Source: a virus
Virus record (IMG/VR): IMGVR_UViG_3300031823_000001
Location: 62,001-126,000 of that record
Reading direction: 5' to 3' (one strand)
DNA length: 64,000 bases
Shown: one piece after another, positions 24 to 29,422 of the stretch
How positions within the stretch are numbered: position 1 is the stretch's first letter
Layout of the letters: each line of letters starts with the position of its first letter
Position numbers and translations under genes: made by a program
Notes under the pieces: model-generated
Told to the model about the DNA's origin: nothing
Seen by the model: only the letters and a program-made list of their open reading frames with translations
The model's database searches: none

Positions 24-61
24 ATTAACGGGGCGGTCCCCAGGTGCCGCCGGGGACCGCT

Positions 62-140
62 AAGAGGAGGCAGGGCTCGAACCTGCAATGCGTGGGCTGG
101 CATCCCGCGCGCCAACGTCTACCAATTCCGCCACTCCTCA
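62..140 (-). tRNA. tRNA-Leu-like, anticodon unclear
   Basis: The D-arm has the Leu-type sequence GTGGCGGAATTGGTAGACG and the T-loop is canonical (TTCGAGC). The acceptor pairs at six positions with a U-U at 1:72. The anticodon stem TTGGC/GCCAG encloses nine bases (GCGCGGGAT) instead of seven and has no clear U33, so I cannot name the anticodon. It may be an unusual or decayed tRNA. Confidence 0.6.
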
Positions 141-144
141 CCCG

Positions 145-218
145 TGGGCGTACCTGGGATCGAACCAGGGACCTCTTCCGTGTCAGGGAAACGCGCGTTC
201 CGCTGCGCTACACGCCCA
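145..218 (-). tRNA. tRNA-Val(GAC)
   Basis: Clean cloverleaf. The stem TTTCC/GGAAG holds loop CTGACAC, giving anticodon GAC. Acceptor TGGGCGT-type pairing is complete. CCA is not encoded. Confidence 0.9.
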
Positions 219-299
219 GATACCGCAGCCTGTTCAGTCTCAGGTCCGTCCCCGGAGGGATGCGAGTCCCGGGCCTAGGCCCGGGAGGTCGCTGCGGCG

Positions 300-373
300 C
301 GGTCGTGACGGGACTCGAACCCGCGATCTCCTCCTTGACAGGGAGGTGAGCACTCCGTCTGCTCTGCACAACC
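300..373 (-). tRNA. tRNA-Asp(GTC)
   Basis: Acceptor GGTTGTG pairs with CACGACC. The stem CCTCC/GGAGG holds loop CTGTCAA, giving anticodon GTC. The discriminator is G, as expected for Asp. Confidence 0.93.
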
Positions 374-449
374 ATGCCTGCTGCACCTTGGCGTCGGTGC
401 TTCCCTCCCCGGACGGCCCGGGTGGTGTCGGAGCGTGCAGGACCGCTCG

Positions 450-523
450 GCTCCGGTACCTGGACTCGAACCAGGAGGCGCGGATTAACAGTCCGCTCGT
501 TTACCGATTAACGGACACCGGAA
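450..523 (-). tRNA. tRNA-Asn(GTT)
   Basis: Acceptor TTCCGGT pairs with ACCGGAG. The stem GCGGA/TCCGC holds loop CTGTTAA, giving anticodon GTT. The T-loop TTCGAGT is canonical. Confidence 0.92.
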
Positions 524-703
524 TGGTTCCCCGCTTCCGGTCAGCAGTGCGGGGAGAACTGCGTTCCGAAGACCACCGGGAGCGACCCGGTGCCGACCTT
601 GCCCTTTCTGAGAGCCGGCCGGGCCAGGGCCGGTGGACGGCCAGGCGGTAGCGTTCTGCCTCCCTTACACCCGGGCGTAAAGGCGCTAGGCCTGTCTCTC
701 TCG

Positions 704-776
704 TAGCGGAGGCAGGACTTGAACCTGCGACCTCTGGGTTATGAGCCCAGCGAGCTACCGGCTGCTCCACTCCGCG
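704..776 (-). tRNA. initiator tRNA-fMet(CAT)
   Basis: The sequence has the bacterial initiator hallmarks. Position 1:72 is unpaired (C1:U72; C1:A72 is usual), and three G-C pairs (GGG/CCC) close the anticodon loop CTCATAA. The D-arm GAGCAGCCGGTAGCTC matches initiator tRNAs. It would supply a phage copy of the start tRNA. The 1:72 mismatch blocks elongator use in known initiators. Confidence 0.93.
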
Positions 777-891
777 TCGTGCTCCCAGGGTATCCCGGGA
801 GGTATCTGTCTCGCACCTGCGAATTTCAGCCCACCAGTGCAAGCGCCCGGATGCCGTAAGAGGGCCGTCCTCTCGCTCCGGCATCCCCAGG

Positions 892-963
892 TGGCCCCAG
901 ACGGTTCCGACCCGTCTTCTCCTGCTTGAAAGGCAAGCGGCCTAGCCATTGGCCGATGGGGTC
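892..963 (-). tRNA. tRNA-Glu(TTC), divergent T-loop
   Basis: The loop CTTTCAA gives anticodon TTC and the D-arm is GCCAATGGCTAGGC. The T-stem GACGG/CCGTC is intact, but the loop is GTCGGAA rather than TTCGAAT, and the acceptor has an A2:C71 mismatch. It is either functional with unusual T-loop chemistry or decaying. Confidence 0.65.
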
Positions 964-997
964 TAGAATGTTACTCGCCGAGTCGGCTGACAACACC

Positions 998-1003
998 TAT
1001 ACT
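998..1003 (+). promoter_or_regulatory. -10 box TATACT, leaderless start
   Basis: TATACT ends six bases before the ATG at 1010, so transcription should begin at the start codon itself. There is no ribosome-binding site, which fits leaderless initiation. No good -35 box is seen. Confidence 0.5.
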
Positions 1004-1009
1004 TAATTC

Positions 1010-1414
1010 ATGAACACCACCACTCAAGGAGAAATAAGCGAAGGCCACGTCATCGCGCACCTACTGAAGCGCGGCTACGCCGTGTCCATACCATTCGGTA
1101 ACAACCAGCGATATGACCTTGTAATCGATGACGGAAGCCATTTGTGGCGAGCCCAGACAAAAACAGCTCGGCTAGAAAAGGGCTGCCTGGTGTTCAATTG
1201 CAGCAATAACGGATACAAGGGCGTACGCAAGACGTATCAGGGGCAGATCGACCTCTTCCTGATCTACAGCCCACACACAGATAAGGTCTATCGGGTACCC
1301 ATCGAAGCAGCTACTGTCACGTCGATGATGCTGCGTATCGACCCGACCAGGGCAGGGAGCCCCAAGTCACCGAAGCATCCGATCAAGTGGGCTAGCGACT
1401 ACGAGCTGACCTGA
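1010..1414 (+). CDS. PD-(D/E)XK homing-type endonuclease
   Basis: The 134-residue protein has the core of the PDDEXK_5 / I-Ssp6803I-like nuclease family: an N-terminal helix, then RYDLVID (about residues 34-40) supplying the catalytic Asp, then a strand with QTK (about 49-51) in place of the usual ExK. Relatives are homing endonucleases, some of which cut tRNA genes. It is the only gene on the plus strand inside the minus-strand tRNA array and lies between tRNA-Glu(TTC) and tRNA-Glu(CTC). It is lower in GC than its surroundings, which suggests recent arrival. It starts leaderless behind TATACT. Family assignment is fairly sure; the target is inferred. Confidence 0.75.
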   Translation: MNTTTQGEISEGHVIAHLLKRGYAVSIPFGNNQRYDLVIDDGSHLWRAQTKTARLEKGCLVFNCSNNGYKGVRKTYQGQIDLFLIYSPHTDKVYRVPIEAATVTSMMLRIDPTRAGSPKSPKHPIKWASDYELT

Positions 1415-1415
1415 G

Positions 1416-1490
1416 TGGTCCCGACGGGATTCGAACCCGTGTCAGTTGGTTGAGAACCAACCATCCTGAACCTGACTAGACGACAGGACC
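1416..1490 (-). tRNA. tRNA-Glu(CTC)
   Basis: The stem GTTGG/CCAAC holds loop TTCTCAA, giving anticodon CTC. Acceptor GGTCCTG pairs with CGGGACC and the T-loop is canonical. It begins two bases past the nuclease stop codon, in the opposite orientation. Confidence 0.92.
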
Positions 1491-1578
1491 ATGTTCCGCA
1501 CGGCTTGACCGACCGCCGGAGAGCACCCGGGGCTAGCAACCGGGTTCACGGGGCCGTCTTTAAGCGCGGCCGTTCAAG

Positions 1579-1651
1579 TGCGCCATGAGGGTCTCGAACC
1601 CTCGGCCAGCCCCTTAGAAGGAGGCTGCTCTGTCCGCTGAGCTAATGGCGC
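1579..1651 (-). tRNA. tRNA-Arg(TCT)
   Basis: Acceptor GCGCCAT/ATGGCGC is perfect. The stem GCCTC/GGGGC holds loop CTTCTAA, giving anticodon TCT, which reads the AGA codon rare in GC-rich hosts. Confidence 0.92.
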
Positions 1652-1660
1652 AGATGCTAG

Positions 1661-1733
1661 TGGGCCGCCAGGGGATCGAACCCTGAACCCGTCGGTTAAA
1701 AGCCGACAACTCTGCCGATTGAGTTAGCGGCCC
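1661..1733 (-). tRNA. tRNA-Lys(TTT)
   Basis: The stem GTCGG/CCGAC holds loop CTTTTAA, giving anticodon TTT. Acceptor and T-arm are complete; CCA is not encoded. Confidence 0.93.
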
Positions 1734-1784
1734 GCGATCGGTATTCGCCGGGCCTGTTTCTCGTACATGTTTTCTCCGTCCCGG

Positions 1785-1857
1785 TGGGCCGTGTACGGAT
1801 TGAACGCACGACTCTCACCTTATAAGGGTGCCACTCTTACCACTGAGTTAACGGCCC
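1785..1857 (-). tRNA. tRNA-Ile(TAT)
   Basis: The loop CTTATAA gives anticodon TAT, which reads ATA directly without the modified CAT tRNA. The anticodon stem has one G-A mismatch at its base. Confidence 0.88.
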
Positions 1858-1862
1858 CTGAG

Positions 1863-1935
1863 TAGCGGTAGAGGGGATCGAACCCCCGACAACCCGATCA
1901 TGAGTCGGGCGCTCTGCCGACTGAGCTACACCGCC
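1863..1935 (-). tRNA. tRNA-Met(CAT), elongator type
   Basis: The stem CCCGA/TCGGG holds loop CTCATGA. Position 1:72 is a G-U pair, so this is not an initiator. A lysidine-modified Ile role (reading ATA) cannot be excluded, but a dedicated Ile(TAT) is next door. Confidence 0.85.
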
Positions 1936-2021
1936 ATGGCGCACCCGGGGTCCCTCACAGCCTCCTGGCGAGCCAGGCTGCCGACCTACCCATCCGGTCG
2001 TACCCTCCGCCGGGTGCACTG

Positions 2022-2095
2022 TGGGCGAAAGAGGAATTGAACCTCTGACCTCCCGGTTATCAGCCGGACGCTCTAACCAACTGAGCTACCCGCCC
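2022..2095 (-). tRNA. tRNA-Ile(GAT)
   Basis: The stem CCGG/CCGG holds loop CTGATAA, giving anticodon GAT. The D-loop is standard and the T-loop is TTCAATT. Confidence 0.92.
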
Positions 2096-2106
2096 ATTTA
2101 CCTGCG

Positions 2107-2192
2107 CAGAGGATTGAGGTGCCGACCCCCACGGCCCTTCCGGACCGCCGCCGGTTTTCGAGACCGGATGCGCCGCCGGGCGCGAACCCTCC
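2107..2192 (-). tRNA. tRNA-Ser(CGA), divergent
   Basis: Class II length (86 nt). The stem CCGGT/ACCGG holds loop CTCGAAA, giving anticodon CGA. The discriminator is G, as in Ser tRNAs. The T-loop is GTCGGCA, nearly the same departure from TTCGAAT as in tRNA-Glu(TTC) at 892, and the D-arm is short. Confidence 0.65.
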
Positions 2193-2244
2193 ACTATCTG
2201 CGGTCGCCCCTGGGAACGCTTTGCGGCCGGAGCCTTGCACGGGT

Positions 2245-2277
2245 CGCAGCACCCGTAGCGGGGAGTCGAACCCCACG
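2245..2277 (-). other. tRNA 3'-half remnant closed by a hairpin
   Basis: Immediately after tRNA-Ser(GGA) the minus strand reads a T-arm with canonical loop TTCGACT, then TACGGGT. Six bases later comes ACCCGTG, which pairs with it over seven bases. No anticodon arm is present. It looks like the 3' piece of a lost tRNA, or a permuted tRNA too decayed to prove. Confidence 0.4.
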
Positions 2278-2362
2278 CGGAGAGAGCGAGATTTGAACTC
2301 GCGAGGCGTTGCCACCAACACGCTTTCCAGGCGTGCGCCCTAGGCCACTAGGCGACCTCTCC
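2278..2362 (-). tRNA. tRNA-Ser(GGA)
   Basis: Class II. The stem CACGC/GCGTG holds loop CTGGAAA, giving anticodon GGA. There is a long variable arm, discriminator G, and a complete acceptor GGAGAGG. Confidence 0.92.
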
Positions 2363-2524
2363 ATGCACGGCCGGATGACCTCCCGGGTTTCCCCTCGGGG
2401 GCTCGCTCCCGCCTGCCGCTGCCTTGCCGCGCGTCAGCAGCAGCGCAGTCACGAGCTGGAAGGTCATCCAAGTGCCGGTCCCGGCTTCCGGTGTACCCAG
2501 GGTGGGAGCCTGCCGGGACCCGAG

Positions 2525-2609
2525 CGGAGGGAGCGAGATTCGAACTCGCGAGGGCGGACCCAACTGCATTAGCGGTGCAGCGCCATAGGCCGGACTAGGC
2601 GACCCCTCC
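2525..2609 (-). tRNA. tRNA-Ser(GCT)
   Basis: Class II. The stem CTGCA/TGCAG holds loop CCGCTAA, giving anticodon GCT (with C33). There is a long variable arm and discriminator G. Confidence 0.92.
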
Positions 2610-2710
2610 ATGTGCGCTGCTCCCCCAGATCCAGGCTCGGGGTGGTAGCTCCCCGGCATAGTCCTGGAGCGGAGCCGGGGTCGCCAGGGTGCCGCAGCGC
2701 GGGCACCCTG

Positions 2711-2797
2711 TGGTGGGCGAAGAGGGACTTGAACCCTCACATCCTTGCGGGATACACGGGCCTGAACCGTGCGCGTCTGCCGTTCCGCCACACGCCC
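2711..2797 (-). tRNA. tRNA-Leu(CAG), CCA encoded
   Basis: Class II. The stem CACGG/CCGTG holds loop TTCAGGC, giving anticodon CAG. The 3' CCA is in the DNA, one of three such genes here with Leu(CAA) and Pro(GGG). Confidence 0.93.
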
Positions 2798-2915
2798 ATG
2801 GAGTGCTCCGCCAACCCGAAGCCCTCTTAGATCTAGCGTCTCGGCAACCGTCATCTCACCAGCCCGGAGACCTCGGGGCTGGCAGCTCGTGGAGCCTGGT
2901 GTGTTGGCGACGCTG

Positions 2916-2988
2916 AGCGGATAACCGGGTTCGAACCGGCGACATCCACCTTGGGAAGGTGGCGCTCTGCCTGCTGAGCTACATCCGC
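2916..2988 (-). tRNA. tRNA-Gly(CCC)
   Basis: The stem CCACC/GGTGG holds loop TTCCCAA, giving anticodon CCC. Acceptor GCGGATG is complete and the discriminator is U. Confidence 0.93.
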
Positions 2989-3084
2989 ATGACCTGGGGT
3001 CCCCTTCAGGCCGCGTCCGGCCTCGGAGGGCGCTCTGTACCATGGCTCGGGCTTTGGGCCAGCAGAGGCGTGGTACCCCAGTTG

Positions 3085-3156
3085 AGCGGATAACGGGGAT
3101 CGAACCCGCGACCTACACCTTGGCAAGGTGTCGCGCTACCACTGCGCCACATCCGC
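3085..3156 (-). tRNA. tRNA-Gly(GCC)
   Basis: The loop TTGCCAA in stem CACC/GGTG gives anticodon GCC. Its acceptor is nearly identical to Gly(CCC), suggesting duplication followed by anticodon change. Confidence 0.93.
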
Positions 3157-3168
3157 ATGCTTACTGCG

Positions 3169-3241
3169 AGCCCGGAGCCGGATTCGAACCGGCGACCTGC
3201 TCCCTACCATGGAGCCGCTCTGCCGCTGGAGCTATCCGGGC
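3169..3241 (-). tRNA. tRNA-Thr(GGT)
   Basis: The stem GCTCC/GGAGC holds loop ATGGTAG, giving anticodon GGT. Acceptor GCCCGGA/TCCGGGC is perfect. Confidence 0.93.
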
Positions 3242-3252
3242 ATGTTCTTGCG

Positions 3253-3327
3253 CTGGGCGGCAGGGACTCGAACCCCGAACCTCCGGGACCAAAGCCCGGC
3301 GCTCTGCCAAAGTTGAGCTAACGCCCA
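3253..3327 (-). tRNA. tRNA-Gln(TTG)
   Basis: The stem CCGGG/CCCGG holds loop CTTTGGT, giving anticodon TTG. U1:A72 and G73 fit known Gln identity elements. Confidence 0.92.
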
Positions 3328-3332
3328 CTGTG

Positions 3333-3405
3333 AGCCGCCTAACGGATTCGAACCGATGACCCTCCGCTTACAAGGCGACTGCTCTTCCTGCTGAGCTAAG
3401 GCGGC
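3333..3405 (-). tRNA. tRNA-Thr(TGT)
   Basis: The loop CTTGTAA gives anticodon TGT. Acceptor GCCGCCT/AGGCGGC is perfect. Confidence 0.92.
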
Positions 3406-3523
3406 GTAGTCCGGGGTACCCTCCCGGTCCAGGACAACCAAGTACCACAGGCACGATGTTCCACAAGCCTGCCGTCCCCGCTCTGCCGGGCTCATATACG
3501 TTTCGCCCGGTTTATCCTGCCCG

Positions 3524-3610
3524 TGTCCGAGGAGGGAATCGAACCCTCACGCCCGTGGGTATGGGCACTAGCACCTCAAGCTAGCGCGGCTGCCGTTACG
3601 CCACCCGGAC
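3524..3610 (-). tRNA. tRNA-Leu(GAG)
   Basis: Class II. The stem CTAGC/GCTAG holds loop TTGAGGT, giving anticodon GAG. There is a long GC variable arm. Confidence 0.92.
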
Positions 3611-3866
3611 ATAAGTCAGACCTACACCCGGGCCGTACTGCCCGGCATCCTTCTCCCGCTTGTCCAGGCTCGGCCTGGCGAGTTCGGGCAACCTAACGCG
3701 GCCCCGAGGGGTCTCCCCTGCCTCGGTCTGACGATCATGGTGACGGCCTCAGCCCTAGCCGCCACGGGAGCCCCGCCTGTACCTCGCTCCTTCTAACTGC
3801 CGGACGTTTCCACCCTCCGCTACCCGGACGTATCTGCAAGGCCGAAGCCCTCGGTGGGACACTACG

Positions 3867-3939
3867 AGCCCCGGAACGGAATCGAACCGTTGACCTCACC
3901 ATTACGAGTGGCGTGCTCTGCCATCTGAGCTACAGGGGC
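3867..3939 (-). tRNA. tRNA-Thr(CGT)
   Basis: The stem CGCCA/TGGTG holds loop CTCGTAA, giving anticodon CGT. The acceptor has one U6:C67 mismatch. Confidence 0.9.
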
Positions 3940-4016
3940 TGGATGCCGCGCTCGATCCGTCTAAGCTACCGGCCCACGGGCGGACCGGACGGGACTCGAA
4001 CCCGCCTCTACGGCTG
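3940..4016 (-). other. permuted tRNA-like locus (3' half before 5' half)
   Basis: This segment exactly fills the space between tRNA-Gln(CTG) and tRNA-Thr(CGT). In minus-strand order it has anticodon-stem 3' strand GCCGT, a canonical T-arm (GCGGG TTCGAGT CCCGT), acceptor 3' strand CCGGTCC, a 6-base link, acceptor 5' strand GGGCCGG, TA, a D-arm (GCTT...GAGC) and anticodon-stem 5' strand GCGGC. The two acceptor strands pair over 7 bp and the two anticodon strands over 5 bp. Joining the ends would close a 7-base loop ATCCACA with U33 and CCA as anticodon. One base (position 26) is missing against the standard fold. It is either a circularly permuted tRNA or the scar of a tandem tRNA duplication. 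Confidence 0.6.
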
Positions 4017-4092
4017 CTGGGGTACCAGGTCTCGAACCTGGAACCTCGGGCACCAGACGCCCGCGCTCTGCCATTGATTGAGCTATACCCCA
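4017..4092 (-). tRNA. tRNA-Gln(CTG)
   Basis: The stem CGGGC/GCCCG holds loop GTCTGGT, giving anticodon CTG. U1:A72 and G73 match Gln identity. Confidence 0.92.
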
Positions 4093-4119
4093 ATGCGGCG
4101 TTTACCGTCTGCCGTGGAC

Positions 4120-4203
4120 TGGTGGGCAAGGAGGGGGTCGAACCCTCATGTCGAAGACACCGGGACTTGAGGCCGGCGCGTCTGCCTGTTCCGCCACTCG
4201 CCC
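4120..4203 (-). tRNA. tRNA-Leu(CAA), CCA encoded
   Basis: Class II with the Leu D-arm. The loop CTCAAGT gives anticodon CAA, with a C-C mismatch closing the loop. CCA is encoded. Confidence 0.88.
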
Positions 4204-4395
4204 AGAGATTGCGGGGCCTGGCCGCCTTCCCCTTGCCAGCTCAGCGGCCAGGCCCGTGTGGACGGGGACCTGCCGCGAGTCCTGCCTGAGGCCTGAGCAC
4301 CGTCGCCCCACGGCCTGGAACCCTGCCGCACGGGTCTCCTCGCGGGTGGCCCGCGCCGCCCATCAGGAAGATACAGCATTTCAAGCCAGCTCGCG

Positions 4396-4468
4396 TGCGC
4401 CGTGAGGGACTCGAACCCCCGGCCCGCTGATTAAGAGTCAGCAACTCTACCGACTGAGTTAACGGCGC
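4396..4468 (-). tRNA. tRNA-Lys(CTT)
   Basis: The stem CTGA/TCAG holds loop CTCTTAA, giving anticodon CTT. Acceptor GCGCCGT/ACGGCGC is perfect. Confidence 0.93.
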
Positions 4469-4472
4469 CTGG

Positions 4473-4543
4473 AGCGGATGACGGGAGTCGAACCCGCGTG
4501 ACCAGCTTGGAAGGCTGGGGCTCTGCCACTGAGCTACGTCCGC
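4473..4543 (-). tRNA. tRNA-Gly(TCC)
   Basis: The stem CCAGC/GCTGG holds loop CTTCCAA, giving anticodon TCC. It completes a three-member Gly set. Confidence 0.93.
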
Positions 4544-4678
4544 ATGTGCCAATTCCACGGCAGTCCTTCATGACGGAACTGCCTCCCTTAACGCAGGGGT
4601 CACAGGCAACCTTCGCGCCCGGGAGCACTTCACCCCGGGCTGCCGCGATGATCCTGAGTGCACCAGGTCGCTGCATCG

Positions 4679-4736
4679 CACGGTCCCGGGGTTCGAACCC
4701 GGCTCGGCCCGTAGGCCTGGCGTCCCGCCGACCGCT
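4679..4736 (-). other. 58-nt mini tRNA-like structure
   Basis: A perfect T-arm (CCGGG TTCGAAC CCCGG) is followed by GACCGTG, which pairs with AGCGGTC 51 bases upstream at six of seven positions. Between them are only two tight hairpins, GGCG-GGA-CGCC and GGCC-TAC-GGGCC, in place of the D and anticodon arms. No anticodon loop exists. It may be a tRNA mimic or a shrunken pseudogene. Confidence 0.4.
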
Positions 4737-4792
4737 TTTCCGCCCGGGGCGCTTACCGGGCGGTCCAGGTGACGTCCGTACGCCTGTCACCG

Positions 4793-4866
4793 TGGTCACA
4801 GGGGCGATCGAATCCCCGGCCTGTCCCTTTTCAGGGGACCGCTCGTACCGTCTGAGCTATGTGACC
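4793..4866 (-). tRNA. tRNA-Phe(GAA)
   Basis: The stem GTCCC/GGGAC holds loop CTGAAAA, giving anticodon GAA. Acceptor GGTCACA/TGTGACC is perfect. Confidence 0.93.
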
Positions 4867-5031
4867 TTGAGTAGCGCCCCGGGGGTCGAGCCCGGCCCTG
4901 GGCGAGTGACCACCGCAGGTGCCCGGTTACCCCGGGCCTGCGGCGTCCGCCCGCCCTGTGCGTGCCACCACACCAAGCGCGGTACGCGGGTTGCGGTCCC
5001 GCGCTCCGGTGACCCCTGGCCTGGGGTCCCG

Positions 5032-5106
<75 letters not shown>

Positions 5107-5216
5107 TTGAAAGGCAGTGCACCCGGGAAAGCTGCGGGGTACCCCGCGAACCCGGGACATGCGTCCATGCTTCGGCCGACCACCTGGTTCGTCCAGATTC
5201 CTGCCTCGGCACTGCC
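5107..5216 (-). other. structured spacer between two tRNA-Pro genes
   Basis: The 110-base spacer is bounded by an 8-bp inverted repeat, GGCAGTGC at one end and GCACTGCC near the other. Inside are a CCCGGGTTCG T-arm-like piece and the palindrome GCGGGGTACCCCGC. It could fold as one closed structure or hold permuted tRNA remains. No anticodon arm can be assigned. Confidence 0.35.
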
Positions 5217-5291
5217 TGGTCGGGATAGCAGGGGTCGAACCTGCCGCCCCCCGGCCCCCAGCCGGGTGCGCTACCGCTGCGCCATATCCCG
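5217..5291 (-). tRNA. tRNA-Pro(GGG), CCA encoded
   Basis: The stem CCCGG/CCGGG holds loop CTGGGGG, giving anticodon GGG. C1:G72 is present and CCA is encoded. Confidence 0.92.
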
Positions 5292-5574
5292 AAGCGAATC
5301 CCTGGCAGGGCGTGGCCCTTCACTACCGCCGCACTTACGCCGGGGATTCTGTTTGCTCGGTGCCAGGCCCTAGCGTCGCGATCACTTCCTGGTCACCTGC
5401 ACGGTACTGCCGGACGGCTCTCGCCTCCCCGTGCTGTGGATGCGCCTGCCCTTTTATGAGTCCCCGGCAGGTACAGGGAGGTTAACGCCGCCCACCCGGC
5501 CGCCGCATGGCAACCAGGACTACTCCCCCTTGCGCGAGAGGGCTTCGGGGGCTGCGCAAGCCCCAGGCGACTCG

Positions 5575-5645
5575 TCGGGACAGCCGGGAACGAGCCGGCA
5601 CCTTCCTGCTTCCAGAGCAGGGGCTCTGCATTGAGCTACATCCCG
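5575..5645 (-). tRNA. tRNA-Pro(TGG), divergent loops
   Basis: Acceptor CGGGATG/TGTCCCG (C1:G72) and stem CCTGC/GCAGG are intact. Loop TCTGGAA gives anticodon TGG with C33 instead of U33. The T-loop is CTCGTTC. The overall fold is complete. Confidence 0.75.
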
Positions 5646-5750
5646 TCACCCGCGTCCGGAAGCCGTTATCCGGTTATGCATTCGGGCTCGCGGCGCCCGC
5701 CCGGCATCCTCCAGCGCTGAGCCTAGGATTCGCGCTGGCAATCACCAAGG

Positions 5751-5824
5751 TGGAGAAGAGGGGACTCGAACCCCTGACAACCCGGTTGCGGGCCGGGTGC
5801 TCTGCCAGACTGAGCTACATCCCC
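5751..5824 (-). tRNA. tRNA-Ala(CGC), C33
   Basis: The stem CCCGG/CCGGG holds loop CCCGCAA, giving anticodon CGC with C33. The acceptor carries G3:U70, the Ala identity pair. Confidence 0.82.
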
Positions 5825-6070
5825 AGGTACGCCGACGCGACTGTCTCCCGACGTGGTGCGACGCCGCTGACGTTTGGCTAAGGCAGTCAGCTAGCCCGGT
5901 ATAAGCCGGAAGCAGGCAGAGACCCCGCTGACAGGCGGAGGCGGCACCGTCGCGCCGCCCTGGTCTCCCGAAGAAGTCAAGCGCCCGGATCGCTCTCGGA
6001 CCTGCCTACGGACCTCGCTTGGCTAAAGAACATCTTCGTTGCCTTCCAACTAGTATCGGCTTCCGGCCGA
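5825..6070. other. gap in tRNA array
   Basis: No gene, tRNA or clear repeat is recognised in this GC-rich stretch. It lies left of the permuted tRNA-like locus and may hold decayed tRNA sequence. Confidence 0.5.
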
Positions 6071-6169
6071 TCACGGCAGTGCTCTCGCGTTTGGTTACGG
6101 TTCGCCGCACCCGCTGTTGAGCTATGCCCCCTCAGGGGCACCCGGTCTGGGGCCGGGATCGCTGCCTCG
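6071..6169 (-). other. second permuted tRNA-like locus
   Basis: After tRNA-Ala(GGC) the minus strand reads GGCAG, CGAT, a T-stem CCCGG/CCGGG (loop CCCCAGA, not canonical), TGCCCCT, two bases, GGGGGCA, TA, GCTC, a long D-loop of about 32 bases, GAGC, A, CTGCC. The acceptor strands pair over 7 bp, GCTC/GAGC form a D-stem, and CTGCC/GGCAG form a perfect 5-bp anticodon stem. The order is again 3' half then 5' half. The oversized D-loop and odd T-loop argue for decay or a different structured RNA. Confidence 0.45.
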
Positions 6170-6242
6170 TGGAGCCTATCGGATTCGAACCGATGACCTT
6201 CTCCATGCCATGGAGACGCGCTACCAACTGCGCTAAGGCCCC
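6170..6242 (-). tRNA. tRNA-Ala(GGC)
   Basis: The stem TCTCC/GGAGA holds loop ATGGCAT, giving anticodon GGC. G3:U70 is present. Confidence 0.92.
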
Positions 6243-6726
6243 ATTGGAGCCGCCCCCACGGTCGCCGGGTAGCCACGAGGGCAGCCGGGCGCGAGGGCGG
6301 ACTCACTGATCCCTAAGATCCTGACGGCCGAGGCCCGGCGCATCCCGCTGGTGTGAACAGCGGGCCGCCTTATCCTCGAAGTGGATACCGCAGCGAGCAT
6401 CGGGATTCTAGCTGGCGAGGTGCCCGGTACAGGACCGTCTTGCGACAGCCCCAGCCTTTAACGGCTGCTGCTCCCCGGGAGTAGCTGCATTGTCTTTCAC
6501 CACGCCGAAATCTGAGCGACCGAGGAGTACCCGCCGGTTTGTTTCATGACTCCACCAGACGGTAAGTGTCCGTAGGTCTCCTAGCCCGGACGGGTCCCCG
6601 GTCGCTGGCGGCAGGTTGGCACCCTGCCGCATTCGTGTTCCGCTGTTGAGATGTCAAATATCGAGCCGGTTACCGTCCTCGGGGCTCTCGCCCGTCGGCC
6701 GGTGGCTGTAGGACCTTGCGGTCCAG
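6243..6726. other. gap in tRNA array with a decayed tRNA-Gly-like piece
   Basis: No intact gene. Around 6575-6655 (minus strand) there is an 8-bp hairpin GCGGCAGG/CCTGCCGC with loop GTGCCAA, which would be a Gly(GCC) anticodon arm with U33. A D-arm-like piece containing CTCAACAGCGG precedes it, but acceptor strands do not pair. Near 6455-6480 is a shorter hairpin with loop GTTAAA. Both look like tRNA fossils. Confidence 0.4.
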
Positions 6727-6798
6727 CAGGGACGGAGGGGCTCGAACCCCCGGCACGCGGCTTTGGAGACCGCTGCTCTACCACTGAGCTACATCCCT
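6727..6798 (-). tRNA. tRNA-Trp(CCA)
   Basis: The stem GCGGT/GCCGC holds loop CTCCAAA, giving anticodon CCA. A1:U72 and G73 fit Trp. It is the most upstream recognisable tRNA of the array. Confidence 0.93.
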
Positions 6799-9760: not shown

Positions 9761-9822
9761 TCAGGTCCCTGCTGCCCCGGAAGGAGTGACCACCAGGGCT
9801 GCAAGCGGGAAAGGGACATTTG

Positions 9823-11364
9823 GTGACGATTCCGTCCTTTACGTCATATCAGCCACCGCAAGTGTATGTAACGGACACTTCGATCCCGATCGTCGTGACC
9901 CCGCTGGTGCCCTCCACGGTCCTGACCCTCGTCGGCCCGGCGCTCGGCTACCGCACCGCCGTCCAGTCGCTGCTGCTCTACGCGGCCACCGCGACCGGCC
10001 TGACCTACACGGGCGTGTTCACCACCGCCCAGTCGGGGCCGCCCGTCGTCACGGCCCCGGTGGTCAGCACCCTGACCGGGACGATCCTCACCGTGGGCGT
10101 GGACTACGAGCTGACGGTGACCGCCGACCCGTCGGGCAACGCCGGGCTGGCCACCACGACGATCACCCGGGTCAACACGAGCACGAACGTCTCCGACGGC
10201 CAGCAGGTCTCGGTCACCTACAACTACGCCGACGCCGGCTACTACGCGCCGCAGGTCTTCTACGACCAGCAGAGCGTCATCAACGCCTACGGGCAGCCGT
10301 TCCTGTCGTCGGTGCCGGTGGCCCCGAACGCCTCCCAGGTGGCGAACCCGCTGTCGTGCGCCGCGCAGATCGCGTTCAGCAACGGGGCGACCACGCTGAT
10401 CTGCGTGGCCTGCAACCCGGCCGACGGGTCCCTGGAGCAGCAGCTCACCGCCGCGTACGCCAAGGTGGCGACCACCCCGGCGGCGACGATCGTGGTGCCC
10501 GTCTTCACCGACGACCTGACCCCGAGTTCGGGCACGGTCGCGGCCGAGGCGCAGTCGCTGGCGCAGGCGCTGAACACCGCGATGGTGACCGCGTACAACG
10601 ACGGGTTCCCCAGGATCGGCTTCTTCGGCCTGCCGAGGAACTACAGCGAGGGCGACATCCCGTTGCCGACGCTGGCGGCGAACATCGCCAGCCGCCGCCT
10701 GGTGCTCGCCTACCCGGAGATCGTGCTGCTCTACAACACGGCGACGAGCACGACGTTCCAGGCGTCGGGCTGCTACCTGGCGGTGGCGCTCGGCGCGGTC
10801 CTGTCGTCCCTGCCGGTCAACACCGGCATCACCAACCAGACGGTGCGGGGGACCGGCGGCCTGCCGCAGGCCGAGGTCACCCTGATGACCAACGCGTTCA
10901 TGAACACGGTCGCGGCTTCGGGCGTGTCGGTGTGCTCGCTGAACTACGCGGGGGCGCTGACCTGCCGCCAGGGCCTGACCACTGACATGTCGGCGATCAA
11001 CCGCCAGGAGATCTCGGTGGTGCGCCAGTCCGACTCGCTGTTCGTGGCGGTCAGCCAGGGCCTGATGAACGCGGGCCTGATCGGCCAGCCGATCACGGCG
11101 AACACGGTCAGCGCGGTGCAGGAGGCGGTTCTCGGCATCCTGGAGGGCGCGGTCACCCAGCAGGTGATCATCAGCTACACGAACCTGACGGTGCAGCAGC
11201 AGGCGTACCCGGGCGGCAACCCGACCATCATGAGCGTGACTTTCCAGTACCTGCCGGCGATGCCGCTGAATTTCATCACCGTGCAGATGTCGATCGACCT
11301 CTCGGGCGGCCTGGTGGCCACCCAGTCGCAGCAGAACGCCTCGGGCACCGGGACAGGCGCCTAA
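9823..11364 (+). CDS. contractile tail sheath protein
   Basis: The 513-residue protein polymerises around the tube and contracts on infection. It has the usual sheath layout: an N-terminal PQVYVTDTSIPIVV strand, a variable insertion domain (about 45-150), and a conserved C-terminal domain with a GITNQTVRG-type loop (about 331) and a final strand for subunit linking (INRQEISVVRQSDSLFVAVSQ and FQYLPAMPLNFITV). The start is GTG 9823 or TTG 9820; GGGAAAGGG favours 9823. It shows the phage is a myovirus. The tube gene should follow directly but is separated by a minus-strand island. Confidence 0.88.
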   Translation: MTIPSFTSYQPPQVYVTDTSIPIVVTPLVPSTVLTLVGPALGYRTAVQSLLLYAATATGLTYTGVFTTAQSGPPVVTAPVVSTLTGTILTVGVDYELTVTADPSGNAGLATTTITRVNTSTNVSDGQQVSVTYNYADAGYYAPQVFYDQQSVINAYGQPFLSSVPVAPNASQVANPLSCAAQIAFSNGATTLICVACNPADGSLEQQLTAAYAKVATTPAATIVVPVFTDDLTPSSGTVAAEAQSLAQALNTAMVTAYNDGFPRIGFFGLPRNYSEGDIPLPTLAANIASRRLVLAYPEIVLLYNTATSTTFQASGCYLAVALGAVLSSLPVNTGITNQTVRGTGGLPQAEVTLMTNAFMNTVAASGVSVCSLNYAGALTCRQGLTTDMSAINRQEISVVRQSDSLFVAVSQGLMNAGLIGQPITANTVSAVQEAVLGILEGAVTQQVIISYTNLTVQQQAYPGGNPTIMSVTFQYLPAMPLNFITVQMSIDLSGGLVATQSQQNASGTGTGA

Positions 11365-12245: not shown

Positions 12246-12565
12246 GATTCCTCCTGGCCGGCGGCGAACCGGGACCTGATCCTGGTGCGGATCTCCCGCG
12301 AATCCATTACCTGCTGCCCGGCTTCCCGCCAGGTGACAGGGACGGCCCCGGCCTTTATGGCGGCGAGGCGCTTGGACTCGGTGACGTCGTAGTGCTGCAT
12401 GGGCCAGGGCTTGTCCTGGAACCAGGAGCGGTGCAGCCCGATCTTCGCGGCGAGGGCGTGCAGTTCCTCGATGTCGTCGTCGGGCCCGACGGTGAGGTGG
12501 GACCAGCGGGCGGTGATGCGGCCGACGGTGGCCTTCTGCCGCCAGTCGTCTACGTAGACGGTCAT
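12242..12565 (-). CDS. DUF4031-family protein
   Basis: The 107-residue protein begins MTVYVDDW and continues with WSHLTVGPDDDIEELHALAA (about 22-41) and WFQDKPWPMQHYDVTESKR, the DUF4031 pattern. The family is common in actinobacteria and phages but has no established function. The ATG at 12565 is chosen because GGAGGAATC precedes it and it overlaps the upstream HNH gene by ATGA. An upstream in-frame extension is unlikely to be used. Confidence 0.75.
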   Translation of the reverse strand: MTVYVDDWRQKATVGRITARWSHLTVGPDDDIEELHALAAKIGLHRSWFQDKPWPMQHYDVTESKRLAAIKAGAVPVTWREAGQQVMDSREIRTRIRSRFAAGQEES

Positions 12566-13440
12566 GATTCCTCCTGGTCGGTGACGTGGGCGTAGGAACG
12601 GCGGCTGAGGATATTGCCGAGGGCGGCTTCCTTGATGCCGAAGCGCCCGGCTAGAACGGAGCGCTTCATTCCCTCGGCCCCGAGCCGCCGGATCTCGCGG
12701 ATCTGCTCGTCCGTGAACCGCGCATCGCTGCGGCGCGAGCGTGCCTTCGGCATGTCCCGGCAGATGATCGAGATGTTCGAGTGGTGAACGCCGAACTGCA
12801 ACCCGAGTTCGTGGATGCTCTTCCCCTCGGCTCGCAGGCGCCTGATCTCTGCGGCTTGAGGTGCGGTGAGCTTCCCGCCTGACATGCGGCGCTCGTGGGG
12901 AGCGATCGGCGGAGGATCGGTGATCCATCCCCAGCTCTTGCCCGAGAGCGCGAGCTGGACAGTGTCGAGCTTGCGGTCCAGTTCGGCGGCGATCTTCGGC
13001 GCACTCAGGCCGCCCCGGTAGAGAGTGCGGGCCTTGCGCACTAGGTCGGGACTCAGTGCGTCCTGGCCGCCGATCCCGAGAGACCGGCGCCTGATCGCCT
13101 TGTCGCGGTTATTGTCCGCGACGCTCCCGTCCCTGATGTGCAGCGGACGGCAGCAGGGCGGGTTGTCGCAGTCATGCCTTCCGATCACCGGCATGTACCC
13201 GTGCACCAGGTAGAAGGCGACTCTCTGGGCGTTGACTGTTCCCTTGCGTCCGGTGAGCGGGTTGATCATGCTGACGGCCCCGTAGTTCCCTCTCGGGCGC
13301 TTCCGGGTGGCTCTGAGGAACTCCCAGCAGGACTCGTCGTCGTCGATGATGTTGACCTTCGGCCAAAACTGCCTGTCGGGACCGGGAAGAGTTGTGAGCT
13401 GGCCGTCTCGGAGGACCTGCTCGTACTCGATGATGTTCAC
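12562..13440 (-). CDS. HNH homing endonuclease with three helix-turn-helix repeats
   Basis: The 292-residue protein has an HNH core (HDCDNPPCCRPLHI, about 84-97, then DNNRD) and three C-terminal DNA-reading repeats, each a helix-turn-helix of about 40 residues (about 125-165, 185-220, 235-275). This is the layout of freestanding phage homing endonucleases. It starts at GTG 13440, seven bases after TAGTAT, so it is probably leaderless. The earlier upstream extension lacks HNH content. It sits 60 bases from, and divergent to, the tube gene, whose reading frame is broken near its start. The target site is inferred to be the tube gene. Confidence 0.85.
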   Translation of the reverse strand: MNIIEYEQVLRDGQLTTLPGPDRQFWPKVNIIDDDESCWEFLRATRKRPRGNYGAVSMINPLTGRKGTVNAQRVAFYLVHGYMPVIGRHDCDNPPCCRPLHIRDGSVADNNRDKAIRRRSLGIGGQDALSPDLVRKARTLYRGGLSAPKIAAELDRKLDTVQLALSGKSWGWITDPPPIAPHERRMSGGKLTAPQAAEIRRLRAEGKSIHELGLQFGVHHSNISIICRDMPKARSRRSDARFTDEQIREIRRLGAEGMKRSVLAGRFGIKEAALGNILSRRSYAHVTDQEES

Positions 13441-13447
13441 GAACCCA

Positions 13448-13453
13448 ATACTA
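13448..13453 (-). promoter_or_regulatory. -10 box TAGTAT, leaderless HNH start
   Basis: TAGTAT on the minus strand ends seven bases before the GTG start of the HNH gene, placing the likely transcription start at the start codon. Confidence 0.4.
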
Positions 13454-13499
13454 TCTTGCGAGAGATGGTGTGGCGCGAGGAACGTCCAGAGAGGGGGTG

Positions 13500-14059
13500 G
13501 TGACCACGGCCTCCACGCAAGCGAGAGTAGTCGGATCAGGCTACACTGTGCTGTCATACAACAGCCAGCCTATCGCTTACTGTGAGGGCTGGTTAATTGT
13601 GAGGATAGTGGGCAACGCGCTTTCAGCGATGTCGGCCAGCCTTATCAATTCATCCAGCCCATTGGTGCCGAGCACCCGGTCGAGATTGCCACGTCGCGCG
13701 TGATCTCCGGCGGCACGGTGATGATCACCATCCGCGAGTTGTGGAACCAGCCCGTGTGGTGGCAGCTCGCCGGGCTGACCGGCACCTGGGACATGGTGGA
13801 CATCTTCACCGCCCTGGCGGCCAACCCTAACTACGTCACCGCGTCGATGATTATCAAGCCGCCCGGTACGGAAAGCAACTCGGGTTCCTGGCGAGGCAAG
13901 GTATACCAGAACGTGACAGTCGTAGACATTAACGACGGCGAAACGGTTACCGTCGGGGCTCTGGCGGTCACTAAGGGTATTACCTTCGCGTACACCCACT
14001 ACGTGCCCCTCAACAGCAACCAGTACGGCGCTGGCCTGCTGGGAACCGCCACCGCCTGA
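13500..14059 (+). CDS. tail tube protein, frame interrupted by a 17-nt insertion
   Basis: The tube forms the inner tail channel. The N-terminus (TQARVVGSGYTVLSYNSQPI) reads in one frame to 13586. The rest (EDSGQRAFSDVGQPYQFIQP... to LLGTATA) reads in the -1 frame from about 13601. Removing 17 nt, 13581-13597, restores one 180-residue protein with a continuous tube-like sequence. The insertion is flanked by the direct repeat TGTGAGG. If uncorrected, the first frame runs to a stop at 13701. The GTG start follows GAGAGGGGGT. The protein must be made for a working tail, so bypass, frameshifting or a dead copy should be considered. Confidence 0.75.
13581..13597 (+). repeat. 17-nt repeat-flanked insertion in the tube gene
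   Basis: TGTGAGG occurs at 13581-13587 and 13598-13604. The first copy with the next ten bases is the exact segment whose removal restores the tube frame. The codons TGT GAG are matched on both sides, as take-off and landing codons would be in a ribosomal bypass. Confidence 0.8.
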
Positions 14060-27038: not shown

Positions 27039-27443
27039 CTAGGACGGCAGCGGGTTGAGGTAGGCGTGCTCTCCGAACAGCTCCAGGGCAGCCTCGTTGT
27101 AGGCGCGGGCGCAGGCTTCCTGGCTGTCCGAGTGCAGGATGGTCCGAGTCTTTCCTTTTATGGTGATGCGGGCGCGCCACTTATTCATCTGCTTGTCCCA
27201 TCCGACCCCCTTGTACTTAGAGGTGTGCCGCGTAAGGTCCGGTCTTCTGTTCTTGTCATTGTGCAGGCCGTCGCGCAGGTTGCGGCGGCGGTTGTCCAGC
27301 GTGTCATGGAAGATGTGATCCGTGCGCGGGTATCCGGTGATCATCGAGTGCATGGAGATGATCTTGTAACCTCCGCCGATCTGACGGATGGCGGTGCGAG
27401 CGTACGGCCCGTTGGTACGTCCGTTGCGCTTGATTTCAAGCAC
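27039..27443 (-). CDS. HNH-AP2 homing endonuclease
   Basis: The 134-residue protein has an HNH core (MHSMITGYPRTDHIFHDTLD, about 32-51, then NRRRNLRDG) followed by an AP2-type DNA-binding domain (YKGVGWDKQMNKWRARITIK, about 80-99, ending NEAALELFGEHAYLN). This is the common layout of phage freestanding homing endonucleases. It sits between gp25-like and J-like wedge genes in the opposite orientation. The J-like gene next to it carries a 7-nt frame-breaking insertion. Start is GTG 27443; no ribosome-binding site is obvious. Confidence 0.88.
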   Translation of the reverse strand: MLEIKRNGRTNGPYARTAIRQIGGGYKIISMHSMITGYPRTDHIFHDTLDNRRRNLRDGLHNDKNRRPDLTRHTSKYKGVGWDKQMNKWRARITIKGKTRTILHSDSQEACARAYNEAALELFGEHAYLNPLPS

Positions 27444-27594: not shown

Positions 27595-29422
27595 TTGGCA
27601 AGCCAGTCTGATATTTCATCTCAGATCATCTCGGTCCTGGCGGCTAGCGAACCTGACCTTGACACCACCGTCGGTTCCGTGACCCGCAAGATCATCGACG
27701 CAGTTGCAGCTTCGATCTCAACTGCTTCGCTGGACCAGCAGATGTTGGCTTATCAATTAGCAATACGATATCAACTCGATGACCGGCGCCGCGCTCGACT
27801 CTTTCGTCCAGCTTTTCGGGATGTCCCGCTACCCGGCCACCCGGGCGGTCGGCACGGTTTCCTTCACCCGGGGCACCGCTGTCGATACCGCGACGGTCCC
27901 CTCCGGCCTCCAGATCGCCTCCGAAGACGGGTCGGTGGTAGCCGTCACCCTGACCGCCGTGATTCTCGACCCGGCGGCACTGAGCGGCACCGCGCCCGTC
28001 CAGGTGGTCACCGCCGGCCCGCAGGGCAACGTCGCCACCGGGACTCTCACACAGGTCCAGAGCCCGGTCGCCGAGATCACCGCCTGCACCAACGTCACCC
28101 CGCTGACCGGGGGGGCCAACCAGGAGACCGACACCCAGCTCCAGGCCCGGTGGAAGGCGACCGTCTTCAAGTCCATGGCCGGGACCAGCCAGATGTTCAT
28201 CGGCATCGCGACCAACGACCCGGACTGCACCGCCGCCAACGTGGTGGACGGGGCGACGAGGTTCCGCGAGCAGGTCCAGATCGCCAGCGGCGCGGCCACC
28301 TCCACGGTCTCCGACGCCCAGTACACCTACCCGTCGGGCCAGGTGGTCGGCCGGGACATCGACAACGGGGACGTCGCCGCGCCGGGCACCCAGTACATCT
28401 GGGACTACACAGCCGACCCGCCCTCGATCTCTGTCATCGACGCGAGCTACTTCCCCAACGCCGAGCTGGTTGACCTGTCGTTCCTCTACATGGACACCTA
28501 CTCGCGCAATTCGGCCGCCGCAGGGATCTACAGCCGGGTGGACGTCTGGTGCGCCGGCAGCCGCCCGGCGGCGGCTTCTGCGACGGTCAACTACCACAAC
28601 GCCACCACGTTCTCCAGCACCACCACCTCAAACTGGTACACGGGGGGCTTCGTGCGGCCCGACGGCACCGCGCCGGCCACGGGGAACGTCTTCGTCGCGC
28701 TGCCCTGGGGGCCGATCGTCACCCTGCCGCCGGTTCTGGTAGTCAACGGCGTCACCTACGGCCTGGCCACCCCCGTCTACCCGCTCGGCTCGGTGTCCGG
28801 CGGGGTCACCTACGCCTACCAGATCGTGCACCGCACCGGGGCGTTCGGCTGGAGCCCGTACTCTGACTTCGGCCTTGAGTGGGACGCTGCCTACCAGCCG
28901 CCCTCAGGGTCCGCGATCACCCTGAGCGAGAACTACACCTACAACAACGTCCCGGCCGCCATCCAGGCGGACCTGGAGAACTGGCGGCTGGCCGGCCAGG
29001 ACGTCCTCGCCCACCAGGGCATCCCGGTTTCCCTCCAGTTCTCCCTCGCGGTCATCTTCGACCCGAGCGTCACCCAGTCGGTCACCCAGACCTCGATCAA
29101 CACCAGCCTCCAGACCTATCTGTCGCAGCTCGGGTTCAACTCGCGGATCTACCCCTCCAGCGTCATCCAGGCAGTGGAGAGCACCCCGGGCGTCATCGCC
29201 TCCCGGTTCCTCACCGGGGCCGACTACCCCGCCTGGAACTCTGCGGCCCCCGACAACTTCAATGTCGGCATCCAGCAGGTCTACGAGGGCGTGGTGGCAC
29301 AGAGCTACGTGGACAGCGGGGGCAACCCGGTAGACGTCGCCCTCGGTGCGGCCCAGCTCCCGACGTTCGGCGGCGCGGTCGTCGTGCCGAAGGCTGGTAA
29401 CACCATGGGGCCGTTCAGCTAG
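27595..29422 (+). CDS. J-like baseplate wedge protein, frame interrupted by a 7-nt insertion
   Basis: The protein is the wedge component that joins hub to fibres. The N-terminal part (SQIISVLAASEPDLDTTVGS...LDQQMLAYQ) reads in one frame to 27756. The rest (YDINSMTGAALDSFVQLFGM... to NTMGPFS) reads in the +1 frame from about 27764. Removing seven bases, CAATTAG (27754-27760), gives one continuous protein of about 606 residues. CAAT repeats flank the insertion and the matched codon CAA lies on both sides. The start is probably TTG 27595. The N-terminal part is lower in GC than the rest, as expected near a homing tract. Confidence 0.75.
27754..27760 (+). repeat. 7-nt repeat-flanked insertion in the J-like gene
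   Basis: CAATTAG is followed by a second CAAT. Its removal restores the wedge frame. In the downstream frame a TAG stop (27758-27760) lies immediately before the CAA that resumes the protein. Confidence 0.8.

What the first reader, a model, noticed from the sequence alone, without database searches (positions are those of the whole stretch)
13440..14059. Tube gene broken by a 17-nt repeat-flanked insertion beside an HNH homing nuclease
Reading directly, the tail tube protein is continuous only if 17 nt (13581-13597) are skipped. The insertion is bounded by TGTGAGG repeats, so TGT GAG codons match before and after. The divergent HNH gene starts 60 bases upstream. In phage T4, homing nuclease mobA and the 50-nt ribosomal bypass in gene 60 form one mobile unit. 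The parallel suggests a much shorter bypass, or a scar that blocks the nuclease site. The tube is essential, so a simple knockout is unlikely in a viable phage.
Basis: partly seen in the sequence, partly recalled or inferred. Interest (0 to 1): 0.87.

Follow-up and report, generated by a model that had tools for sequence, protein, structure and literature searches.

The report
Rare-codon ribosome skip in phage genes
An essential tail gene of this soil phage is interrupted by eight bases that begin with the phage's rarest codon, and matching interruptions in relatives and in isolated Streptomyces phages suggest that ribosomes stall at that codon, slide to a look-alike codon and carry on, next to a DNA-cutting gene that probably spreads the interruption.

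Summary
The tail tube frame is really broken, but by 8 nt (TTAATTGT, 13593-13600), not 17: intact relatives read PIAYC-EGW-EDSGQR, so the first TGTGAGG copy is native. Five relatives' tubes are broken too (six breaks), always by short inserts that put an in-frame TTA, nearly absent from these genomes, directly after the last native codon. Two more structural genes show the same, including a baseplate-J gene in this window (27757-27763). Isolated Streptomyces phages (phiHau3, GreenWeasel, BroPlease, Triumph) and Streptomyces prophages carry it in their terminase. Over 23 distinct breaks, the last three inserted bases repeat the first two bases of the pre-TTA codon in 19 (chance 1/16 each). Best reading: ribosomes stall at UUA, peptidyl-tRNA slides 2-15 nt and re-pairs, giving the exact native protein. 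A UUA-linked bypass was already proposed for the phiHau3 terminase; T4 gene 60/mobA is the homing parallel. New here: several structural genes, an unrelated phage group, a cognate-landing rule, and a tie to HNH genes: all 8 tubes with an HNH gene directly upstream are broken (5) or synonymously recoded (3); all 18 tubes flush with the sheath gene are intact. Translation itself is inferred, not shown.

The parts
13497..13592 (+). 5' part of the tail tube gene (frame 1; GTG start at 13497 or 13500), ending in the take-off codon TGG 13590-13592
   Evidence: Translation matches intact relatives up to ...AYCEGW
13593..13600 (+). 8-nt insert TTAATTGT: in-frame UUA (13593-13595), then AT, then landing codon TGT (13598-13600; matches take-off TGG in its first two bases)
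   Evidence: Absent from intact relatives; relatives carry other TTA-first inserts at the same site
13601..14059 (+). 3' part of the tail tube gene, resumed in another frame at GAG 13601, no stop until 14057-14059
   Evidence: PHROG 2756 6e-24; 70-94% identical relatives; dN/dS about 0.07-0.13 in comparisons with other tubes
12562..13440 (-). HNH endonuclease gene, divergent, 59 nt upstream of the tube
   Evidence: PHROG HNH families 1e-15 to 1e-10; Pfam HNH_3 below cut-off, helix-turn-helix domains; homologues directly upstream of broken or recoded tubes
27595..27756 (+). 5' part of a baseplate-J gene (TTG start), ending in take-off codon CAA 27754-27756
   Evidence: Matches intact orthologues up to ...MLAYQ
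27757..27763 (+). second element of this genome: 7-nt insert TTAGCAA = UUA + G + landing codon CAA (identical to take-off CAA)
   Evidence: tblastn of orthologues gives +7 nt (sequence)
27764..29422 (+). 3' part of the baseplate-J gene, resumed at TAC 27764
   Evidence: Pfam Baseplate_J 2e-26; PHROG baseplate wedge 5e-34
27039..27443 (-). HNH-AP2 endonuclease gene, divergent, directly upstream of the baseplate-J gene
   Evidence: PHROG 99 HNH endonuclease 2e-25; Pfam AP2 3e-6, below its cut-off
9820..11364 (+). Tail sheath gene; in most relatives the tube follows it within 40 nt, here separated by the HNH cassette
   Evidence: PHROG tail sheath 5e-41; gap table
61..6798 (-). Cluster of 34 tRNA genes, none reading UUA
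   Evidence: ARAGORN

Best explanation
The 8-nt insert is a UUA-primed translational bypass element. The ribosome reads the tube mRNA to Trp (UGG, 13590-13592) and meets UUA, the genome's rarest codon, for which the phage has no tRNA gene and which, if the host is Streptomyces-like, is served by a scarce tRNA. With the A site empty, peptidyl-tRNA detaches, slides 8 nt and re-pairs at UGU (13598-13600); translation resumes at GAG (13601), so the protein keeps exactly the native residues ...CEGW|EDSGQR... Such elements are minimally UUA + one nucleotide + a codon like the take-off codon. They recur in essential genes next to HNH endonuclease genes, probably because the insert together with synonymous recoding makes the gene immune to the nuclease and is copied with it during homing. 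Shown: the anatomy, the TTA rule, the take-off/landing match, the HNH association, purifying selection, presence in plaque-forming phages. Inferred: that bypass occurs, that scarce tRNA-Leu(UAA) drives it, that the insert blocks cleavage.
For: (1) Ten breaks in three genes across six genomes (tube 7, gene X 2, baseplate J 1) were found by homology, not by looking for TTA; in all ten the codon right after the last native codon is TTA. TTA is used 0-9 times per genome (3 of 45,694 codons in G000, mostly at doubtful ORF ends), and no phage tRNA-Leu(UAA) was found. [quoted passage not shown] (3) phiHau3, GreenWeasel, BroPlease and Triumph, deposited complete genomes with named Streptomyces hosts, carry the same elements in their single terminase gene; at the second terminase site, not selected for TTA, three of three distinct inserts obey both rules. 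(4) All five hits of a gap-tolerant pattern among 84,980 prokaryote genomes are Streptomyces. (5) No second tube copy; dN/dS about 0.06-0.20 downstream of breaks. (6) Of 28 tubes, 18 flush with the sheath have no break, 10 with interposed DNA have 6 broken; all 8 with an HNH gene are broken or 5'-recoded.
Against: No protein or RNA data. In this very tube the landing codon (UGU) mismatches tRNA-Trp at the third position; one break (TGT to TAC) matches one base only, and three land on codons with one mismatch in the first two positions. No common RNA structure was found. TTA is rare mainly because of 70% G+C. Metagenome contigs do not prove viability, and two relatives with breaks carry almost no tRNA genes, so a full phage tRNA set is not required. 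No homologue of the four HNH query proteins was found in the terminase loci, so the HNH link is not universal. The host of this phage is unknown.
Confidence: 0.8

Rival explanations
1. Nuclease scar: the insert is an error-prone repair product of HNH cutting, the tube is simply dead, and the contig is a defective or minority genome.
For: HNH gene adjacent; inserts lie at a few recurrent sites; metagenome contig.
Against: Random scars would not all start with in-frame TTA nor end in a copy of the take-off codon; plaque-forming Streptomyces phages carry the same elements in the terminase; the frame downstream stays intact under purifying selection.
Confidence: 0.07
2. Developmental gate: the element exists chiefly to tie an essential gene to the host's tRNA-Leu(UAA) level (bldA in Streptomyces). 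When UUA is decoded, the frame is lost; when the tRNA is scarce, bypass occurs and phage assembly proceeds. Homing is incidental. (This shares the bypass step with the best explanation and differs on purpose.)
For: UUA is the shared feature; prophage hits are all Streptomyces; a review of recoding links the phiHau3 case to the host's unusual decoding of UUA (PMC5009743).
Against: Strong HNH and recoding association in the tube set; the elements are polymorphic among close relatives, which suits a mobile or tolerated insert better than a fixed switch.
Confidence: 0.35
3. Conventional +1/-1 ribosomal frameshifting rather than sliding: the ribosome decodes UUA and slips within the insert, adding a few extra residues.
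For: Most inserts are 1 or 2 mod 3 (22 of 23), and tail genes often use frameshifting.
Against: One insert is 15 nt with an in-frame TAG; no shared slippery heptamer seen; a simple frameshift does not predict that the last three inserted bases copy the take-off codon.
Confidence: 0.1
4. Sequencing or assembly artefact.
For: The window comes from a metagenome contig.
Against: Independent records and separately isolated phages carry rule-obeying inserts.
Confidence: 0.02
5. RNA-level removal of the insert (processing or mini-intron).
For: Would also restore the native protein.
Against: Inserts of 2-15 nt are far too short for known introns; two inserts are only TT.
Confidence: 0.03

Closest known systems
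Putative UUA-linked bypass in the terminase of Streptomyces phage phiHau3 and prophage StrepC.1 (reviewed in PMC5009743; primary paper, from memory Smith et al. 2013 J Bacteriol, not held)
   Same: Essential phage gene broken in frame, UUA directly after the take-off codon, Streptomyces host; the same two rules hold when the phiHau3 sequence is re-read.
   Different: The window's cases lie in tail tube and baseplate J of an unrelated phage of about 160 kb, with shorter inserts, and next to HNH genes; the phiHau3 terminase has no homologous HNH gene nearby.
Phage T4 gene 60 bypass with mobA homing endonuclease
   Same: Non-coding insert skipped to join two frames; matched take-off and landing codons; slow or stop codon after take-off; homing HNH gene in the neighbourhood; insert thought to protect against cleavage (PMC5009743).
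   Different: 50 nt instead of 2-15; T4 uses a stop codon, a nascent-peptide signal and stem-loops (PMC11194080); here UUA takes the place of the stop and no common peptide or structure is seen.
Mitochondrial bypass inserts of Magnusiomyces capitatus
   Same: Many short frame-disrupting inserts that translation restores (PMC5009743).
   Different: Mitochondrial, 81 sites; no UUA rule known to me; not linked to phage HNH genes.
Hungry-codon slippage and sliding in E. coli (laboratory phenomenon)
   Same: An A-site codon lacking charged tRNA provokes peptidyl-tRNA slippage or sliding.
   Different: There it is a starvation error; the review states that no examples are known of such frameshifting serving trans-frame proteins with starvation-specific function. 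Here it would be used by essential genes.

Membership tests
UUA-linked bypass of phiHau3 type | In-frame UUA immediately 3' of the last native codon | tested here: met
   TGG|TTA at 13593 and CAA|TTA at 27757; phiHau3 GGC|TTA and TCT|TTA
UUA-linked bypass of phiHau3 type | Insert ends in a codon the take-off tRNA can re-pair with | tested here: met
   19 of 23 distinct breaks match in the first two bases; the window tube is TGG to TGT (third base differs), the window J is CAA to CAA
UUA-linked bypass of phiHau3 type | Streptomyces (bldA) host | tested here: inconclusive
   Terminase relatives are all Streptomyces; no cellular genome matched the tube; Lsr2-like gene and tube relatives in Mycobacterium, Gordonia and Rhodococcus phages suggest an actinobacterial host
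UUA-linked bypass of phiHau3 type | Full-length protein actually made | not testable with these tools
   Needs virion mass spectrometry or a reporter
T4 gene 60 bypass / mobA cassette | Take-off codon followed by a stop codon | tested here: not met
   The codon after take-off is UUA in every case
T4 gene 60 bypass / mobA cassette | Matched take-off and landing codons | tested here: met
   with exceptions stated
T4 gene 60 bypass / mobA cassette | Take-off and 5' stem-loops | tested here: inconclusive
   Hairpins at some sites (L005, phiHau3 site 2), none at others
T4 gene 60 bypass / mobA cassette | KKYK nascent-peptide signal | tested here: not met
   Absent from the tube N-terminus; the broken tubes, X and J share no obvious peptide before the break
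T4 gene 60 bypass / mobA cassette | Adjacent homing endonuclease whose site the insert interrupts | tested here: inconclusive
   HNH gene adjacent; cleavage site not determined
Group I intron or intein | Insert long enough to carry splicing machinery | tested here: not met
   Inserts are 2-15 nt

The most novel reading that the evidence does not exclude
UUA-primed micro-bypass elements (2-15 nt, minimally UUA + N + cognate codon) are a recurrent class of natural ribosome-sliding sites in actinobacterial phages, placed in essential structural genes as part of HNH homing cassettes, and they make virion assembly depend on scarcity of the host's UUA-decoding tRNA.
Probability: 0.5. Interest if true: 0.92.

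Novelty: new variant of a known kind. Interest (0 to 1): 0.82.

Why it matters
Natural programmed bypass rests on very few cases. This set gives a simple sequence rule (sense codon UUA, then a copy of the take-off codon), many naturally varied examples of 2 to 15 nt, and cultivable phages with laboratory Streptomyces hosts. It would show a rare sense codon doing the job of the stop codon in T4, make sliding at hungry codons a used mechanism rather than an error, connect recoding with homing endonuclease immunity for a second time, and tie phage assembly to a developmentally regulated tRNA. It would also correct annotation: split terminases and missing tube genes in such phages are probably whole genes.

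Tried and rejected
17-nt insertion between TGTGAGG repeats: rejected, because the first repeat and GGCTGG are native. Second tube copy as rescue: none. Full phage tRNA set as a requirement: rejected, G004 and G014 have one or two tRNA genes. Active avoidance of TTA: not claimed, G+C content explains its rarity. Shared RNA hairpin: mean folding excess is weak. Structure of the tube: AlphaFold2 model of an intact relative had pLDDT 45, so no fold search was made. Host through prophage search with the tube: no hit. Scan for the HNH family gave 80 loci but no further breaks outside the known genomes. Tube-pattern scan found only G004, G006 and four other contigs that were not followed up. Non-TTA breaks: one well-supported case, G004 near 105878 in a 1,498-aa tail protein, probably a 1-nt error or loss in G/C-rich DNA.

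Full report
Setting. The window is positions 62001-126000 of a 161,740-base virus record, G000. It encodes a contractile-tail phage: tail sheath (9820-11364), tube (about 13497-14059), Lsr2-like protein (14160-14495), tail assembly chaperone (15161-15703), a long ORF in the tape-measure position (16338-18749) and a baseplate-J protein (27595-29422). Thirty-four tRNA genes lie at 61-6798.

The observation. The tube frame is broken, but by 8 nt rather than 17. Thirteen IMG/VR relatives (70-94% identical) show that the native protein reads PIAYCEGWEDSGQRAF. In the window TGG (13590-13592) is followed by TTAATTGT (13593-13600) and then GAG GAT AGT GGG (13601 on). No second tube gene was found in this record or in the 13 relatives.

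Relatives are broken by the same rule. Among the relatives, tubes of G004 (L006), G006 (L008), G003 (L005), G007 (L009, two sites) and G014 (L135) are also out of frame. Written as take-off codon | insert | resume codon: G000 TGG|TTAATTGT|GAG; G004 TGG|TTAATGC|GAG; G006 TGG|TTACCTGG|GAG; G003 TCT|TTAGGAGCCTAGTCT|GGT; G007 TGT|TTAC|GAG and TTT|TT|ATC; G014 CAG|TTACTTAG|TTC. A genome-wide tblastn comparison added gene X, a conserved protein of about 206 aa of unknown function encoded downstream of the tube (PHROG 2786): G004 CTC|TT|ACC and G006 CTA|TTACAAAGCTC|ACC. It also added a baseplate-J gene in the window itself: CAA|TTAGCAA|TAC at 27754-27766. These ten breaks were found by homology alone, and in all ten the in-frame codon right after the last native codon is TTA. 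TTA is the rarest or second-rarest codon in all but one (a 22-kb fragment) of the 14 records (3 of 45,694 in G000), and the listed occurrences are mostly near the ends of doubtful ORF calls. No record has a recognised tRNA-Leu(UAA) gene, though many have 33-41 tRNA genes. The rarity follows largely from about 70% G+C, so I do not claim avoidance; the point is that TTA sits exactly at the breaks. One well-supported break without TTA (G004 near 105878) gives the background.

Landing rule. If peptidyl-tRNA slides over the insert, the landing codon is the last three bases before the resume codon. [quoted passage not shown] Two inserts of only TT (CTC|TT|ACC, TTT|TT|ATC) fit a +2 slide onto CTT and TTT.

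Isolated phages. A review of recoding mentions that Streptomyces phage phiHau3 and prophage StrepC.1 probably use bypassing at a key UUA codon in the terminase (PMC5009743). I fetched phiHau3 and compared it with R4. Its terminase has two breaks, GGC|TTACTCCGGT|AAG and TCT|TTAACGGTCC|ACG, each with UUA directly after take-off and a landing codon read by the same kind of tRNA. GreenWeasel carries both, BroPlease and Triumph the first only; these three are annotated as separate ORFs. A pattern scan of IMG/VR found twelve terminase records with TTA at the first site (phiHau3's own among them), with inserts of 7, 8 or 10 nt; the landing codon is Gly in all but one of the distinct inserts. This scan was conditioned on TTA but not on landing. 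At the second site, conditioned on neither, L318 (TCC|TTAGCGGTCC|ACG) and L339 (TCT|TTAGTCC|ACG) obey both rules. A gap-tolerant pattern over 84,980 prokaryote genomes found five hits, all in Streptomyces. Over all 23 distinct breaks, 19 match in the first two bases (binomial 9e-20) and 22 in at least two of three. Related sequences are not fully independent, so these figures overstate significance, but inserts differ between genes and sites.

Link to homing. Twenty-eight tube loci were classed by the gap to the sheath gene. In 18 the gap is at most 40 nt and none is broken. In 10 DNA is interposed and six are broken (Fisher, by arithmetic, 5.6e-4, ignoring kinship). Eight of these ten have an HNH gene directly upstream: five are broken (one of them, L008, beside an HNH gene with an internal deletion) and three (L130, L132, L134) are intact. 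The remaining two are G007, with a DNA methylase gene, broken, and L117, with no HNH gene found, intact. All eight HNH-flanked tubes plus G007 have lower G+C at third positions in the first 45 codons (difference -0.15 to -0.36) than the other 15 tubes compared (-0.13 to +0.11). Synonymous recoding next to a homing gene is the usual sign of a co-converted, cleavage-resistant tract (T4 background on co-conversion: PMC2988022). The HNH proteins beside G000, G004 and G012 tubes are homologous (44-70% identical). The baseplate-J gene has an HNH-AP2 gene directly upstream. Gene X of G006 keeps a fossil: the old GC-rich 5' end of X fused to what looks like the C-terminal end of an HNH gene, followed by a new recoded X start and then the UUA insert.

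Still coding. Downstream of the breaks dN/dS is about 0.06-0.20 in comparisons that involve broken tubes, similar to intact pairs (0.18-0.30), with no stop codon. Breaks may be recent, so this is support, not proof.

Mechanism. Shown by sequence: in-frame UUA, landing-codon match, exact restoration of the native protein, HNH and recoding association, presence in plaque-forming phages. [quoted passage not shown], PMC2000904), the A site stays empty, peptidyl-tRNA detaches, slides and re-pairs. Inferred too: the insert and recoding protect the gene from the HNH nuclease and spread with it. A second possible role, not exclusive, is that the element permits assembly only while the UUA tRNA is scarce.

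Limits. The window's own tube has a third-position mismatch at landing (tRNA-Trp on UGU). There is no common RNA structure and no protein evidence. The host is unknown: the tube found no cellular genome, though the Lsr2-like gene and relatives in Mycobacterium, Gordonia and Rhodococcus phages point to actinobacteria. The primary phiHau3 paper is not held, so I cannot say whether both sites and the landing match were already described there.

Verdict. A real, non-random feature; a new variant of a known but rare and little-tested kind. Compared with the phiHau3 proposal it adds three structural genes in an unrelated phage group, up to two elements per genome, a quantitative landing rule, a frequent compact form of 7 nt (UUA + N + codon), and the connection to HNH homing genes.

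Noticed in passing
window 61-6798: 34 tRNA genes in one cluster (40 in the whole record), covering most codon families but never UUA or CUA leucine.
   Followed up: partly
window 11973-13440 (- strand): Three consecutive minus-strand genes end in Gln-Glu-Glu-Ser; the sequence encoding it (CAGGAGGAAAGC-like) probably doubles as the ribosome-binding site of the next gene.
   Followed up: no
window 11372-11782 and 12245-12928 (- strand): Cargo genes between sheath and tube: a small protein with a HLHVHL motif (HIT-like, by eye) and a DUF4031 protein (Pfam 1e-19).
   Followed up: partly
G006 about 33590-33860 (- strand; L111): Fossil of an HNH invasion of gene X: old 5' end of X fused to what looks like an HNH C-terminus, followed by a new recoded X start and a UUA insert.
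   Followed up: partly
L264, L265, L266 (Triumph, GreenWeasel, BroPlease): Terminases annotated as two or three separate ORFs are probably single genes joined by UUA bypass.
   Followed up: yes
G004 near 105878 (- strand): Frame change without TTA in a 1,498-aa tail protein in G/C-rich DNA; perhaps a 1-nt sequencing error.
   Followed up: partly
G001 and G008 records: ARAGORN reports tRNA-like genes with 2-nt or 4-nt anticodons (gt, gaag, gcaa); possible odd anticodon loops or false calls.
   Followed up: no
G007 27944-29210: The twice-broken tube follows a cassette with an N6/N4 DNA methylase (Pfam 2e-19) and no HNH homologue, perhaps a different protection route.
   Followed up: partly
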